In this document: one piece after another, positions 13,616 to 45,261 of the stretch
Layout of the letters: each line of letters begins with the position of its first letter
Position numbering within the stretch: the first letter of the stretch is position 1
Origin: a virus
Strand: one strand, 5' to 3'
Length of the DNA stretch: 54,654 nt
IMG/VR virus record: IMGVR_UViG_3300044515_000008
Coordinates: 1-54,654 of that record
Notes under the pieces: generated by a model
The model's input: the letters and a program-made list of their open reading frames with translations, nothing else
The model's database searches: none
What the model was told of the DNA's origin: nothing
Made by a program: the position numbers and the translations under genes

Positions 13616-13646
13616 GGTGGCGCTCCCTGATGAGTAGTTATAGAGC

Positions 13647-13678
13647 GGGGGGACCGCATATCCGGCGATCCCCCCGCA
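13647..13678 (-). terminator. Hairpin closing the tRNA-like cluster
   Basis: A 9-bp stem (GCGGGGGGA with TCCCCCCGC) around an inner CCG/CGG, just after the last tRNA-like element in the minus direction. No long T-run follows on the minus strand (TCTATAA), so termination strength is uncertain. Confidence 0.6.
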
Positions 13679-13680
13679 TT

Positions 13681-13727
13681 AATTGTGTAATGGATTTCAA
13701 GTCCATTGCTCGGTGAGAGCGACAATT
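13681..13727 (-). ncRNA. 47-nt T-armless tRNA-like element with UGA anticodon loop
   Basis: On the minus strand the order is a 6-bp end stem (AATTGT/ACAATT), a hairpin GCTC-TCACC-GAGC in the D-arm position, one A, and an anticodon-type hairpin ATGGA-CTTGAAA-TCCAT with U33 and anticodon UGA (Ser), then the closing strand. No T-arm and no CCA. On the plus strand the same sequence also folds, with loop TTTCAAG. It may be a minimal tRNA mimic, a tRNA remnant or a stable 3' structure. It directly follows the permuted tRNA-like modules. Confidence 0.4.
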
Positions 13728-13783
13728 TAGCTACGACTGGGGACGAATGACGCATTTAAAATGTACGGGTCAAGCTGAGTTAA

Positions 13784-13854
13784 CGTCGGGTTCTGCCATT
13801 GAACTATGGGACCACGTTGGAGGTTCCAGCCGGACTCGAACCGGCATTACGACG
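13784..13854 (-). tRNA. Circularly permuted tRNA-like module P2 (3' half before 5' half)
   Basis: Reading minus: CGTCG-TAAT, T-arm GCCGG-TTCGAGT-CCGGC, acceptor 3' strand TGGAACC, T73, encoded CCA (13854-13818); a 4-nt linker ACGT (13817-13814); then acceptor 5' strand GGTCCCA, TA, D-arm GTTC-AATGGCA-GAAC with the usual A14 and GG, C26, CGACG (13813-13784). The acceptor strands pair at 6 of 7 positions and CGACG/CGTCG pair 5 of 5 at exactly the anticodon-stem position, followed by T32 T33. Neither half has a partner in the normal order nearby. Amino acid identity cannot be set because the loop junction is unknown; T73 with GGT/ACC ends resembles tRNA-Cys. Confidence 0.5.
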
Positions 13855-13926
13855 AAAGGCGCACGCACATAGTAGATTCACAAGTCCGTAGCAATACTGA
13901 CTATAAGGGCGAGAGTTTGACGTTTG

Positions 13927-14003
13927 CGTCCTGCTGCCTCTACCAATTGGGCTACCGGGGCAAGCGTGCCCCGGGGAGGATTCGAACCTTCACTGTCGCG
14001 GGA
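13927..14003 (-). tRNA. Circularly permuted tRNA-like module P1 (3' half before 5' half)
   Basis: Reading minus: TCCCGC, a 6-nt variable segment, T-arm GAAGG-TTCGAAT-CCTCC (one A-C mismatch), acceptor 3' strand CCGGGGC, A73 with no CCA (ends 13967); 5-nt linker CGCTT; then acceptor 5' strand GCCCCGG, TA, D-arm GCCC-AATTGGTAGA-GGC, A26, GCAGG (13961-13930). The acceptor strands pair 7 of 7. The anticodon stem GCAGG/CCCGC has one A-C mismatch and no U33 can be placed, so this copy is less regular than P2 and may be decayed. Confidence 0.45.
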
Positions 14004-14052
14004 TGTGTCGCATTGAGTCTAAGCCTTGTGCTGAGTCTGAGTCTGTGCCCTA

Positions 14053-14076
14053 ATTCCCCGAACATGTGTCCGGGGA
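14053..14076. terminator. Hairpin after the 14084-14815 gene
   Basis: Stem TTCCCCGgACA/TGTtCGGGGAA with a 4-nt loop lies just after the stop of the minus gene ending at 14084. Plus reading is followed by GCTTTATTAT; minus reading has no T-run. It may separate the coding mRNA from the tRNA-like cluster or act as a processing boundary. Confidence 0.5.
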
Positions 14077-14083
14077 AGCTTTA

Positions 14084-14815
14084 TTATGCGAACAGGTAGC
14101 CGAACACGGTGCCGCCGATATTGTTTTCGATGGCTTCGGCCCCGTTCGCCACTTCGCGTGCGACCTTGACCGCACGAGCGAGAGTGTCCACACGCGTCAC
14201 TAACTCGGCGACCCGCGATGCCTGTACGGCGCCCGAAAAGTTAACGGTCGTCCACGTACCGGCTACGATATCTTCGTACCACATCTCCACTTGCGCCGCG
14301 TGCTTGTCGGTTGCCATGGCCTTGACGTGGTTACGGGGCACCTTTTTCGTCTTCGTGGTCTCTCGTGCGTCCGTCGCAAAACAGTCCGCAGATTGGCTGT
14401 AAGACCAATGCTCGGCGGGGTCAAGTACGGGCAACTTGCGAACAAACGTGCGCAAGTCGGCTAGCTGCTTTTCGAGGAATAGCAGCACCGTTACCGGCAC
14501 GGCGGTCAGCAGTGCGACACCGTCGACGACGATATCGGCCCGCGCTACCGTGTTCGTGGTTTCCTTCGTGGCGACCACATCGAACATGCGCGTCAAGTCC
14601 TTTACTACCAACGAAATCACGTCGTCGGTGCGAACCTGAACGCGGGTCGATTCCGGCGGCAACCGGTCGCCGTCGTCGTCTTTCGGCGAGTACGTGCGGG
14701 AGATTCCCGACAAGAGAGACTGTGTCTGTAGTTCGTGGTACGCCTTCGTGAGCGACGCAACCCCTTGCCCCTTAACGGTTTTCTCGATAGCGATGATCTG
14801 ATTTAGCTTGGCCAC
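14084..14815 (-). CDS. Conserved phage protein of unknown function
   Basis: 243 residues from the GTG at 14815, with AAGGAG eleven bases upstream; the longer frame to 14887 starts in intergenic-looking sequence. Begins MAKLNQIIAIEKTVKGQG and contains SRTYSPKDDDGDRLPPES; mostly helical. The family recurs in actinophages next to an AAA+ ATPase gene (recollection); here it directly follows one. Possible partner of that ATPase. Confidence 0.65.
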   Translation of the reverse strand: MAKLNQIIAIEKTVKGQGVASLTKAYHELQTQSLLSGISRTYSPKDDDGDRLPPESTRVQVRTDDVISLVVKDLTRMFDVVATKETTNTVARADIVVDGVALLTAVPVTVLLFLEKQLADLRTFVRKLPVLDPAEHWSYSQSADCFATDARETTKTKKVPRNHVKAMATDKHAAQVEMWYEDIVAGTWTTVNFSGAVQASRVAELVTRVDTLARAVKVAREVANGAEAIENNIGGTVFGYLFA

Positions 14816-14911
14816 AACGGATTCAACTCCTTGTCGGTGTGCGAAGTAGGGGCCGGGACACCCCCGCAGACGACGACGTCTCGCCATGTCCCGACCCCAA
14901 AACTGTGGTGC

Positions 14912-16381
14912 TTACGCGGCGCGCTTCAAGCTATAGATGGTGTTCTGCTCGTGCGGCTCCACACCGGACACGAAACCCATGCCGTTGACACTGTCCTTAA
15001 TCAACTCCGCGAGCTGGTGATCAAGCGGGTTGACCGCCACACCTTCCTTGGCGTCTTGCATAAGGTCATGCTGGGGACGTAGGCCGTCGGCGGCGTTCAC
15101 CAGGTCGGCCGTGCCGATGACGTCCGGCACACCGTCGTTTCGGGAGATGGTGTACATGAGTGCCCGGTCAATGGCGGACTTCGCGAACGCGGGAAGGAAA
15201 CCGTCGAAAGCCTTAGCTACCACCGAATAGTTGATCGATCCGAGCAGCTTTTCCGGGATCACTACCTTGATCAGCTTCTCGTATCCGGCCGCGTCGAGTC
15301 CAGCAATCTCGACCAGCGCGTCAATGCGTCCCGGCCGCAACACTCCCTTTTGGATCTGATCAAGGTGGTTCGTGGTGAACCCAGCGAGAATCGCCACGCC
15401 TTTATTAGCGATGCCGTCGAGCGAATCGAGCAGGCCGCTAATCTGCTGCGCGCTGGTGCCCTTTGCCACGTTGTCAATGTCCTCGTACCAGACGACGGCG
15501 GGCGCGTACAATTCGGCCGTGTGCAACACTTCCTGAAGATCATCCTTGCCGGGACGGGCGAGAATGAAAGTCCACCCGTTGGCTACGGCCTCTTTCGCGG
15601 TGAGCTGCCCGGCAAGTGTCTTGCCCGTACCGTACGGCCCGTACACCAACACGCTTCGCTTGAGCGGGATTCCGTTGTCCCGCATGGTGTCCGTGTATCG
15701 GAGCATTGACCAGAAATTCGTGTCGAGCTGCGTCTGTACCGCATCGGAGTACACGACTCGTGACGGGTCGATTGACGCGGTGTCAAGGAAAGCGGGGTCA
15801 TCGCCGCCGGTAATGGCCTTGCCCCGGTAGATCGAATTCGTCTTGAGCTCGTTCTCTACGACCTGAAAGAACGCTTCGATGTAGGCGCGGTACCGGCGCG
15901 GTGCCTCGACGCCGATAGCGAACACGAGTCCGAAGTCATTGTGTGTCGTGTGCAAAGTGAATTCGGCAGAGAGCGGGGAAAAGCTGACCGTGCCCCACGG
16001 AATTTGAATCGACTGCGTCGAGCTAACCGGGATGGTGCGGTATTGCGGCTTGTACTCGCCGAACATGTCCGACACGGTGACTCCGATACCGACGGTTCCG
16101 AACGTGTTTTTCATGGCGTTCTGAAACGCGTTGGCCCCGTCCCACGGGCGGTAGTCGAATACGCGGGTGAATTCGAAAGTGTTGTTCTGCTGCTTGTCGT
16201 ATTCATTGAGGTACCGTCGCGCCCCCTGAATATCGCCGCTCATGCTCTCGGGGAGAATGAACTTGGTCCCCTCAAAGATGAGACTGTCATCCCCAATGGT
16301 GATCTTCCCCAGCTCGCCGAGCTTCGCCAGGATAGCCGCGCGGGTTTTCTCTTCGGCCGTCGTGGCCTCTGCTGTAGACAT
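14912..16381 (-). CDS. AAA+ ATPase
   Basis: 489 residues from the ATG at 16381. The C-terminal half has the full ATPase set: Walker A GPYGTGKT (~248-255), Walker B VVWYEDID (~296-303), sensor-1-like TTN (~336-338) and LRPGRID (~348-354) with the arginine expected of CDC48/FtsH-type AAA domains. The N-terminal ~200 residues form an unrecognised domain, likely for substrate or partner binding. Probably remodels nucleoprotein complexes in replication or recombination. Confidence 0.88.
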   Translation of the reverse strand: MSTAEATTAEEKTRAAILAKLGELGKITIGDDSLIFEGTKFILPESMSGDIQGARRYLNEYDKQQNNTFEFTRVFDYRPWDGANAFQNAMKNTFGTVGIGVTVSDMFGEYKPQYRTIPVSSTQSIQIPWGTVSFSPLSAEFTLHTTHNDFGLVFAIGVEAPRRYRAYIEAFFQVVENELKTNSIYRGKAITGGDDPAFLDTASIDPSRVVYSDAVQTQLDTNFWSMLRYTDTMRDNGIPLKRSVLVYGPYGTGKTLAGQLTAKEAVANGWTFILARPGKDDLQEVLHTAELYAPAVVWYEDIDNVAKGTSAQQISGLLDSLDGIANKGVAILAGFTTNHLDQIQKGVLRPGRIDALVEIAGLDAAGYEKLIKVVIPEKLLGSINYSVVAKAFDGFLPAFAKSAIDRALMYTISRNDGVPDVIGTADLVNAADGLRPQHDLMQDAKEGVAVNPLDHQLAELIKDSVNGMGFVSGVEPHEQNTIYSLKRAA

Positions 16382-16488
16382 ACGGTGTCGCCTCGCTGTT
16401 TGTCGTTGAATGATGCGTGACACTGTGAGGAATCGGACCTCATGCGGCTAACGTCGGGGTAACCGTCTTTACTCGTCCAGTGCCGTTC

Positions 16489-42948: not shown

Positions 42949-45261
42949 CTATCCGCCTTTCATTGATACTGCTGGACGATCAACGTTGTGCATAGCCGAG
43001 ACGGCCCGATCCACAAGGGACATACGCGGTGCATCCCGATCCACGTCCGTCATGAACCCCACTTGCGATTTCAACGTCACGTCAAAGGCAACGGCTCCAA
43101 CGAGCGCGCAACCCGCAACGGTCGTGATCACGATTCGAGGATCGAACGCCGAACCGGCCGACGTGCTGCCACCGTCCGCAACGGACACCGCCGCGACACC
43201 GTCCACTGCGGAACCGGCCGACAACCCGGCACCGGCCGGGGCACCGACAGACGTACTCGTCGTCACCGTCGCGTCGAGCGCGGCACCGGAACCACTGGCC
43301 GTATCCGTCGGCCACACCGTCACGGTTGTGGCGTCCACCGGGGCAGCGATCCCGACCGCGTATCCAGCCGCAACGGCGACGAACGCAAACGTCACCACGG
43401 CCGGATCATCGGCCAGTACCGAACCGGCCGCGCCGGTGTCGAGCACGCCCGTGGCCGGAGTGGCGTCGAGCGCCGCGCCCGTGGCCGTCGAGCCCGTGTC
43501 TACCGCCACGGTGCCCGGGGTGGCGTCGAGCGCGGCGCCGGTCGCCGACGGCCCGGTGTCGACGGCCCCGATACCCGGGGCGATGTCGTCCGCTAGCGCA
43601 CCGCCAACGGCATTGACCGCACCAACAGAAACCGCGCCTTGCGGGTCCCCAGCTTGCCCGCTACCGGACGCTACGTCCGCCGGTGCCGTAGCGGCCGTGG
43701 ACGTCGTCACCGTGGCGTCAGCGGCGGAACCCGTGGCCGTCGAGCCCGTGTCTGCTGCCCCGTTGGCCGGGGTGGCGTCGAGTGCGGCGCCGGTTGCCGA
43801 CGGCCCGGTGTCGAGCACGCCCGTGGCCGGGGTGGCGTCGAGCGCCGCGCCCGTGGCCGTCGAGCCCGTGTCTGCTGCCCCGTTGGCCGGGGTGGCGTCG
43901 AGCGCGGCACCGGTCGCGGGTGCTACGTCCGCCGGTGCCGTAGTGGCCGTGGACGTCGACACCGTGGCGTCGAGCGCGGAACCCGTTCCGGCCGGGCCGG
44001 TGTCGAGCGCGCCGGTTGCCCCGGTGGCGTCGAGCGCGGCGGCCGTGGCCGTCGAGCCCGTGTCTGCTGCCCCGTTGGCGGGGGTGGCGTCGAGAGCGGC
44101 GCCCGTTGCCGACGGCCCGGTGTCGAGCGCGCCGGTAGCACCGGTGGCGTCGAGCGCGGCGCCGGTCGCGGGTGCTACGTCGGCCGGTGCCGTAGTGGCC
44201 GTGGCCGTCGACACCGTTGCGTCGAGCGCGGCGCCCGTAGCCGTCGAGCCCGTATCGAGCGCGCCGGTTGCTGGGGTGGCGTCGAGCGCGGCGCCGATCG
44301 CCGACGGCCCGGTGTCGAGCGCGCCCGTGGCCCCGGTGGCGTCGAGTGCCGCGCCGGTCGCCGTCGAGCCCGTACCCGCCGTGCCGGTAGCACCGGTGGC
44401 GTCGAGTGCGGCGCCGGTGGCCGTCGAGCCCGTGTCTGCTGCCCCGTTGGCCGGGGTGGCGTCGAGCGCGGAACCGGTCGCCGTCGAGCCTGTACCGGCC
44501 GTGCCGGTGGCGCCGGTGGCGTCGAGCGCGGCGCCCGTTGCCGACGGCCCGGTGTCGAGCGCGCCGGTGGCCCCGGTTGCGTCGGCGGTCGCGACAGTCC
44601 CGTCACCCTGTACCGCGTTGGCCGATGTTCCGCTAGCGCCAAGGACTTCGAGCGAAACGATGGCGTATTTCTGGCCGGTGGGTGCGGTGAGCCCGGTGGT
44701 TTTCGCACCGGCCGCACCGGCATCGGAGTAGTACGCGCCATAGTTCGTTTCGTCGCCGGTGACGTCGACGTACGTCACTTCGCTTGCCGCGACATTGATT
44801 GTCTGCCATGTACGGCTAGCGCCGGAAATTTCGTTCCAGTCGGACGTTGCCGTGACCACAATGGAGTTTGCTTGTGTTGTGGTCAGGGACAATGTCGGTG
44901 CGCCCGTGGTGTTTGTCTTCGCGGTCGCGCCGATGCCGGATGATCCGGAGAACCGTAGACAGTTGTAGCCCCATGACGTTGGGCTACCGGTAATCGCTTG
45001 TGACAGGGTGAACGTTTGCGAGGTTGGGCACGGTGCCGTCCACACCGAAACGCGGCAATATTGGTGTACCGCAACGTCTTGCTTGAGTGTGTAGGTGAGG
45101 CTGCCACCGGTAGGCGTCGCCGGTGTAAAGGCCGTGCCGTCTGGCGCAATGGTGAAGATCACCAGGACATCACCGGCGACTACCGTCACCGACTCGGTTT
45201 TCGGTGTGGTGCTACCGGTCCATGTTGTCTCGTATTTCGCGACGAACGTAGGTCCGGCCAC
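42949..45261 (-). CDS. 770-residue repeat-rich virion protein (lectin-like head plus Ala/Thr/Gly/Asp repeats)
   Basis: Residues ~1-210 form a beta-sandwich-like domain (VVAGDVLVIFTIAPDG, WGYNCLRFSGSSGIG, YAIVSLEVLG), as in host-glycan-binding or decoration proteins. Residues ~215-610 are degenerate 20-residue repeats of ATGAALDATPANGAADTGST type, then ~160 residues of mixed sequence. It sits among head-completion genes, so a capsid fibre or decoration protein is likely. The repeats would let copy number change by recombination. Not collagen-like (no Gly-X-Y). Confidence 0.6.
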   Translation of the reverse strand: MAGPTFVAKYETTWTGSTTPKTESVTVVAGDVLVIFTIAPDGTAFTPATPTGGSLTYTLKQDVAVHQYCRVSVWTAPCPTSQTFTLSQAITGSPTSWGYNCLRFSGSSGIGATAKTNTTGAPTLSLTTTQANSIVVTATSDWNEISGASRTWQTINVAASEVTYVDVTGDETNYGAYYSDAGAAGAKTTGLTAPTGQKYAIVSLEVLGASGTSANAVQGDGTVATADATGATGALDTGPSATGAALDATGATGTAGTGSTATGSALDATPANGAADTGSTATGAALDATGATGTAGTGSTATGAALDATGATGALDTGPSAIGAALDATPATGALDTGSTATGAALDATVSTATATTAPADVAPATGAALDATGATGALDTGPSATGAALDATPANGAADTGSTATAAALDATGATGALDTGPAGTGSALDATVSTSTATTAPADVAPATGAALDATPANGAADTGSTATGAALDATPATGVLDTGPSATGAALDATPANGAADTGSTATGSAADATVTTSTAATAPADVASGSGQAGDPQGAVSVGAVNAVGGALADDIAPGIGAVDTGPSATGAALDATPGTVAVDTGSTATGAALDATPATGVLDTGAAGSVLADDPAVVTFAFVAVAAGYAVGIAAPVDATTVTVWPTDTASGSGAALDATVTTSTSVGAPAGAGLSAGSAVDGVAAVSVADGGSTSAGSAFDPRIVITTVAGCALVGAVAFDVTLKSQVGFMTDVDRDAPRMSLVDRAVSAMHNVDRPAVSMKGG
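43400..44640. repeat. ~60-bp degenerate tandem repeats within the virion protein gene
   Basis: About twenty units coding for the 20-residue repeat (GTGGCGTCGAGCGCGGCGCC core). Codon-level sequence is highly conserved, so the array recently expanded or is homogenised. Long open frames on the opposite strand here are by-products. Confidence 0.85.

What the first reader, a model, noticed from the sequence alone, without database searches (positions are those of the whole stretch)
13855..13929. Spacer between the permuted tRNA modules may hold processing elements
The spacers before P1, between P1 and P2, and after P2 share short patterns: an (A/T)AACTC or GACTC start, and ATG(C/T)G before the 3' half. 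GACT/AGTC and AAGGC/GCCCTT in the first two spacers can pair, and TGTGCG/CGTACA pair across P2. Each spacer gives only about 40-80 nt, too short for a complete canonical group I intron.
Basis: inference. Interest (0 to 1): 0.7.

Follow-up and report, generated by a model that had tools for sequence, protein, structure and literature searches.

The report
Twin tRNA-mimic RNAs beside DUF7873 gene
Just after a gene of unknown function (DUF7873), this phage-like genome encodes two linked RNAs that imitate tRNAs with their parts in swapped order, and the same gene-plus-RNA unit recurs in many phages and bacteria, so it looks like an undescribed RNA-protein machine rather than tRNA genes awaiting splicing.

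Summary
The two permuted modules are real (minus strand: P1 core 13991-13936, P2 core 13845-13790), and the spacer is part of a conserved structured RNA. They do not look like split tRNA genes: no anticodon arm or U33, no intron match, no RtcB. They are tRNA-mimic heads, in the T-arm/acceptor-hairpin/D-arm order of YrlA Y RNAs, on long irregular stems. Covariance models built without the window find P2 at E 9e-21 and P1 at E 1.5e-16.

The gene directly upstream is DUF7873. In 175 of 190 DUF7873 loci from phages and bacteria of several phyla, such modules lie just downstream on the same strand (pattern-scan controls: 1/190 upstream, 0/190 reverse strand). Ro60, the partner of known YrlA RNAs, is absent from the window and 21/21 other DUF7873 virus records. 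Best reading: a DUF7873 ribonucleoprotein built on two permuted tRNA mimics, YrlA-like in architecture but with a different protein. RNA identity is well supported; partner binding and function are inferred.

The parts
14084..14887 (-). DUF7873 gene (PF25283); conserved part begins at the GTG at 14815
   Evidence: Pfam E 2.3e-100; alignment of 77-86 relatives; confident fold, no clear PDB match
14054..14077 (-). hairpin TTCCCCG/CGGGGAA between the DUF7873 stop and the RNA
   Evidence: sequence; hairpins here are stronger than in shuffles across 49 loci, 61% against 24% scoring at least 5
14046..14051 (-). P1 outer helix, 5' strand AGGGCA (pairs with 13911-13906)
   Evidence: covariation peak in the column scan
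14015..14044 (-). hexamer array AGACTC AGACTC AGCACA AGGCTT AGACTC
   Evidence: 6-nt register in homologues
13998..14003 (-). P1 anticodon-position helix, 5' strand TCCCGC (pairs with GCAGGA 13934-13929, one A-C mismatch)
   Evidence: helix supported in homologues by own-versus-cross pairing, weak in the window itself
13936..13991 (-). P1 permuted tRNA-like core: T-arm 13991-13975, acceptor 13974-13968 with 13961-13955, loop 13967-13962, D-arm 13952-13936
   Evidence: R2 model E 1.5e-16; YrlA 21.7 bits
13899..13918 (-).
13864..13881 (-).
   Evidence: covariation; R1 model E 8.9e-21
13850..13854 (-). P2 anticodon-position helix, 5' strand CGTCG (pairs with CGACG 13788-13784)
13790..13845 (-). 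P2 permuted tRNA-like core: T-arm 13845-13829, acceptor 13828-13822 with 13813-13807, loop TCCAACGT 13821-13814 (N73-CCA), D-arm 13804-13790
13747..13788 (-). P2 3' arm: CGACG 13788-13784, CGTACAT 13767-13761, conserved TTAAATG 13759-13753, outer helix TCAT 13750-13747
13645..13677 (-). terminal GC-rich hairpin with GGATAT loop
   Evidence: sequence; similar hairpins after P2 in 15/79 loci against 1/78 in control windows

Best explanation
The spacer is not an intron. It is the 3' arm of one tRNA-mimic RNA (P1) and the 5' arm of a second (P2), encoded as a unit of about 300 nt directly after the DUF7873 gene. Each has a permuted tRNA-like head (T-arm, capped acceptor stem, D-arm) on an irregular stem; P1 carries a hexamer array clamped by an outer helix, P2 a conserved internal loop (AUCGAC / UUAAAYG). 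Shown: the structures, their covariation, and near-constant co-inheritance with DUF7873, without Ro60 in viruses. Inferred: DUF7873 binds the hexamers and/or the P2 loop to form a ribonucleoprotein, and the heads dock an enzyme that recognises tRNA (a nuclease, modification enzyme or RNase P), tethering or decoying it much as YrlA Y RNAs tether Ro60 to PNPase. The RNA identity I hold at about 0.95; the RNP-scaffold mechanism as a whole at the confidence given.
For: Leave-window-out covariance models find P2 (8.9e-21) and P1 (1.5e-16) exactly here. P2: 33 of 34 pairs with changes on both sides, score 0.734 against 0.223 shuffled and 0.12-0.19 slid. P1 outer helix found by a scan of all windows. 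Hexamers in 6-nt register. Modules in 175/190 DUF7873 loci; pattern-scan controls 1/190 upstream and 0/190 reverse strand. Found from both directions: L002 and L121 came in through the RNA and carry DUF7873. No other conserved neighbour. P1-P2 spacing 142-172 nt. No TROVE in the window or in 21 other DUF7873 virus or phage records.
Against: No expression, binding or genetic data. DUF7873 shows no fold with a known RNA-binding role. The tight 3' position also fits a cis-acting 3' UTR. In the window the P1 anticodon-position helix and the P2 outer helix are imperfect. Fifteen of 190 loci have no module found within the window used. The enzyme docked by the heads is unknown.
Confidence: 0.6

Rival explanations
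1. Ordinary phage YrlA-type Y RNAs that use a host Ro60: the modules are divergent YrlA and DUF7873 is a bystander or an accessory.
For: Same permuted order; weak RF02553 matches, stronger for the Annadreamy relative; TROVE is enriched in other virus records with permuted heads, 11/24 against 1/29.
Against: Both heads far below the RF02553 cut-off of 69 bits; no DUF7873 locus tested reached it (8 loci); no TROVE in 21 other DUF7873 virus records and none found in 14/24 DUF7873 bacteria; DUF7873 is the constant neighbour; the outer arms differ from those of TROVE-linked RNAs.
Confidence: 0.15
2. A cis-acting 3' UTR of the DUF7873 mRNA: the protein or a tRNA enzyme binds it and controls the message (autoregulation, protection from decay, or processing).
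For: Same strand, usually 50-250 nt after the stop in most loci.
Against: Two complete heads, long-range covarying helices and a repeat array are elaborate for a 3' element; in L175 the RNAs lie upstream of the gene. Does not exclude that the RNA also acts in trans.
Confidence: 0.15
3. Genuine permuted tRNA genes whose transcripts are cut and joined (bulge-helix-bulge or RNA-ligase route) to give tRNAs.
For: Reversed halves, acceptor hairpin, G1-C72 in 43/45 P2 and encoded N-CCA in 30/45 P2.
Against: T at position 33 in 16% and 29%, no anticodon arm, conserved outer helices, no RtcB in 25 records.
Confidence: 0.03
4. The acceptor loops are cut by RNase P and trimmed to CCA, giving two-piece, possibly aminoacylated tRNA mimics in the manner of permuted tmRNA.
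For: Loop usually starts N-CCA and ends CAT or CGT directly before G1.
Against: P1 of the window lacks CCA, as do a third of P2 and over half of P1 homologues; G3-U70 in 0/45 P2.
Confidence: 0.07

Closest known systems
YrlA Y RNAs (Rfam RF02553) with Ro60/Rsr (PMC8394870, PMC7790460)
   Same: Permuted tRNA-like head with capped acceptor stem; long stem formed by the 5' and 3' ends; RNA encoded beside its protein gene.
   Different: Partner gene is DUF7873, no Ro60 in the virus records; two heads in tandem at fixed distance; hexamer array and AUCGAC/UUAAAYG loop; acceptor loop often encodes N-CCA; scores well below the Rfam cut-off.
TROVE-linked permuted RNAs in virus records
   Same: Same head order.
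   Different: They carry a complete anticodon stem-loop beside the head and TROVE in the genome, no DUF7873.
Permuted tRNA genes of archaea and algae
   Same: 3' half before 5' half with a short linker.
   Different: No anticodon loop or U33 can be formed.
Two-piece (permuted) tmRNA
   Same: tRNA-like domain whose acceptor end is closed by a loop in the primary transcript.
   Different: Complete D-arm and T-arm, no G3-U70 pair in P2, no match to tmRNA families at these modules.

Membership tests
YrlA Y RNA (RF02553) | permuted tRNA-like domain: T-arm, acceptor hairpin, D-arm | tested here: met
YrlA Y RNA (RF02553) | score at or above the family's gathering cut-off (69 bits) | tested here: not met
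   24.1 and 21.7 bits; none in 8 further loci
YrlA Y RNA (RF02553) | Ro60 (TROVE) encoded nearby or in the same virus genome | tested here: not met
   none in the window or in 21 other DUF7873 virus/phage records; the records may be fragments
YrlA Y RNA (RF02553) | stem formed by the 5' and 3' ends | tested here: met
   covarying outer helices of P2 and P1
YrlA Y RNA (RF02553) | binding to Ro60 and PNPase | not testable with these tools
   needs biochemistry
Permuted tRNA gene | 3' half precedes 5' half with short linker | tested here: met
Permuted tRNA gene | joined halves give an anticodon loop with U33 | tested here: not met
   T33 16% (P1), 29% (P2) against 1141/1198 in canonical tRNAs
Permuted tRNA gene | bulge-helix-bulge splice motif | not tested
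   no dedicated scan was run
Group I intron | conserved catalytic core | tested here: not met
   no group I intron match in cmscan of the window or of this stretch with permissive settings
Ro60/TROVE protein (for DUF7873) | TROVE sequence profile | tested here: not met
   Pfam gives DUF7873 only; no TROVE in the window
Ro60/TROVE protein (for DUF7873) | TROVE HEAT-repeat ring plus vWA fold | tested here: inconclusive
   confident model, no clear PDB match of any kind

The most novel reading that the evidence does not exclude
A categorically separate class of ribonucleoprotein: DUF7873 assembles along a 6-nt repeat array, and two permuted tRNA mimics (P1 and P2, sometimes followed by a T-armless third tRNA-like piece) present tRNA-like heads to a cellular tRNA enzyme. 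It would be shared by phages and bacteria and be parallel to, but independent of, Ro60/Y RNA.
Probability: 0.4. Interest if true: 0.92.

Novelty: new variant of a known kind. Interest (0 to 1): 0.8.

Why it matters
In the literature I could read, bacterial Y RNAs with a tRNA-like head are described as partners of Ro60. Here a comparable permuted tRNA mimic, doubled and with its own motifs, is tied to an uncharacterised protein family in phages of Actinobacteria, Cyanobacteria and Proteobacteria and in bacterial chromosomes. That gives DUF7873 a first testable role, adds an RNA family that Rfam 15 does not recognise, and makes the question of what phages and bacteria gain from tRNA mimics testable in cultured phages such as NiceHouse, Phendrix and Mimi. 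No paper naming DUF7873 was found, but most subscription journals are not covered.

Tried and rejected
Group I intron or self-splicing permuted tRNA: no intron family, no U33. RtcB-dependent joining: no RtcB in 25 records. Joining the halves and running ARAGORN: too permissive, accepted many different junctions with different anticodons, so discarded. Single-sequence folding: no better than shuffles. Own-versus-cross pairing with wide windows for P1: uninformative, replaced by the column scan. A conserved third gene: the largest neighbour clusters were other-frame readings of DUF7873 itself or lineage-specific genes; the AAA+ gene upstream (14912-16423) is not a constant neighbour. Known fold for DUF7873: only weak Foldseek and VIA matches; prefoldin- and V-ATPase-like coil matches not trusted. 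PDB sequence search: nothing convincing. Defence and NCBI family libraries: nothing for DUF7873. GACT/AGTC as a conserved pair: no support. A coding role for the spacer: only 4/54 loci with both modules have any open frame across the span. Searches failed on input form and gave no data.

Full report
What was asked. The window is a virus record of 54,654 bases in IMG/VR. It carries a phage integrase, a primase and a tape-measure protein; a megablast of its last 24.7 kb against isolated phages gives only a short capsid-gene match to Gordonia phage Mcklovin.

The modules. On the minus strand the order is T-arm, 3' acceptor strand, short loop, 5' acceptor strand, D-arm, twice: P1 core 13991-13936 and P2 core 13845-13790. 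ARAGORN and Rfam at curated cut-offs find nothing. A permissive Rfam search gives YrlA (RF02553) for both cores at 24.1 and 21.7 bits, far below the 69-bit cut-off. BLASTN finds P1 in Rhodococcus phage NiceHouse and in three Streptomyces phages, unannotated in each; the Annadreamy copy fits YrlA over the full model at 37.8 bits, still below the cut-off.

The gene beside them. The gene directly upstream (14084-14887) is DUF7873 (PF25283, E 2e-100). Relatives were collected from viral contigs, isolated phages and bacterial genomes. A pattern scan for the module within 1 kb downstream finds it in 141 of 190 loci, against 1 of 190 in equal windows upstream and none on the reverse strand. Adding covariance-model hits raises this to 175 of 190; the controls were run with the pattern scan only. 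Several of the remaining loci are truncated or have the RNAs elsewhere: L175 upstream, L151 about 1.8 kb away. The association was also reached from the RNA side: L002 (by BLASTN) and L121 (by a DNA pattern) both turned out to have DUF7873 just upstream. No other gene is conserved in these neighbourhoods. DUF7873 is in 17 of 22 Glycomyces genomes and 7 of 146 cyanobacterial genomes, so it is not only a phage gene.

The RNA structure. For P2, 45 aligned homologues support an outer helix, a second helix, and the acceptor, T and D helices; 33 of 34 counted pairs show changes on both sides, 88.1% of cells are paired against 61.2% in shuffles and 39-45% when slid, and the covariation score is 0.734 against 0.223 and 0.12-0.19. 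A helix in the place of the anticodon stem is supported by own-versus-cross pairing; it scores only 50% in the fixed-column count, I think because the variable loop is 4 or 5 nt long. Between the two outer helices lies a conserved internal loop, AUCGAC on one side and UUAAAYG on the other. For P1, a scan of every 6-column window shows that the segment at CGCTCC covaries with the sequence just before the hexamers, 47 of 63 sequences reaching a pairing score of at least 5; in the window this is AGGGCA/CGCCCT. Inside this clamp lie A-R-R-Y-T-S hexamers spaced 6, 12 and 18 nt (60, 33 and 17 pairs; about 0.1-0.3 in shuffles). P1 and P2 lie 142-172 nt apart, mostly 142-153. Models built without the window recover P2 at E 8.9e-21 and P1 at E 1.5e-16.

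Not a tRNA gene. If the halves were joined, position 33 would be T in 16% (P1) and 29% (P2) of homologues; in canonical tRNAs from the same loci it is T in 1141 of 1198. Neither RNA has an anticodon arm. RtcB is absent from all 25 records searched.

Not plain YrlA either. A wider set of virus records with permuted heads is rich in Ro60/TROVE (11/24, against 1/29 records picked up by the same DNA pattern without such a head), so permuted heads in phages are often Y RNAs, as published for bacteria (PMC8394870; TROVE in some jumbo phages, PMC7824862). But TROVE is absent from the window and from 21 other DUF7873 virus or phage records, and among those 24 records the two with DUF7873 lack TROVE. 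Ten of 24 DUF7873 bacteria have TROVE somewhere in the genome. Models R1 and R2 mostly match only the tRNA-like core of the TROVE-linked RNAs.

The protein. AlphaFold2 gives a confident monomer (pLDDT 95.8, pTM 0.75): long helices, beta hairpins and a C-terminal helix. No PDB match is convincing (best 3kdq, Z 9.5, rmsd 7.9, function unknown).

Mechanism. Shown: two conserved structured RNAs with permuted tRNA-like heads, co-inherited with DUF7873. Inferred: DUF7873 binds the repeat array or the P2 internal loop. The 6-nt register suggests repeated binding by several subunits, which is untested. The heads would engage an enzyme that reads tRNA elbows; known YrlA RNAs are substrates of DusA and TruB and tether Ro60 to PNPase (PMC8394870), and a role of the YrlA head as an inhibitor of an anticodon nuclease has been proposed (PMC7790460). 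The N-CCA at the start of the acceptor loop in 30 of 45 P2 and 28 of 63 P1 homologues may be mimicry or may mark a processed end.

Limits. There are no expression data. Virus records may be fragments. The modules were first found with a hand-made pattern and the DUF7873 loci were chosen by sequence similarity, so counts are not independent samples; some loci are repeats of the same contig. The 'other' class of 50 modules, mostly Glycomyces and Actinomadura P2-like copies, was not modelled separately. The paper library lacks most subscription journals and holds no paper on DUF7873.

Noticed in passing
window 13681-13728 (-); L236 3590-3666; L247 3629-3718: Between P2 and the terminal hairpin lies a miniature tRNA-like element with acceptor stem, D-arm and a complete anticodon arm (Ser UGA-like CTTGAAA loop in the window) but no T-arm; L236 and L247 have a comparable element at the same place with other anticodon loops, while L131 and L244 seem to have one with a T-arm.
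   Followed up: partly
L045, L051, L071, L073, L081, L097, L103, L118, L122: Permuted tRNA-like RNAs in virus records, most of which encode TROVE/Ro60, carry a complete anticodon stem-loop beside the T-arm, with differing anticodons, split in the 5' strand of the anticodon stem. This differs from the Rfam YrlA consensus and deserves its own study.
   Followed up: partly
window 13645-13677 (-): GC-rich hairpin with a GGATAT loop after P2, shared with other loci (15/79 against 1/78 in control windows); possibly the 3' end of the transcript.
   Followed up: partly
window 14912-16423 (-): AAA+ ATPase gene next to DUF7873, with weak similarity to the anti-phage ATPase IetA over the ATP-binding region only.
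   Followed up: no
L001 3975-4081: Streptomyces phage Annadreamy has a YrlA-like RNA but neither TROVE nor DUF7873 was found in its genome.
   Followed up: partly
L144 575-1103: Gordonia phage Phendrix has an unannotated tmRNA match in Rfam beside its DUF7873 unit.
   Followed up: no
window 43200-44450: GC-rich repetitive stretch inside the 42949-45261 reading frame, which gave false module hits.
   Followed up: no
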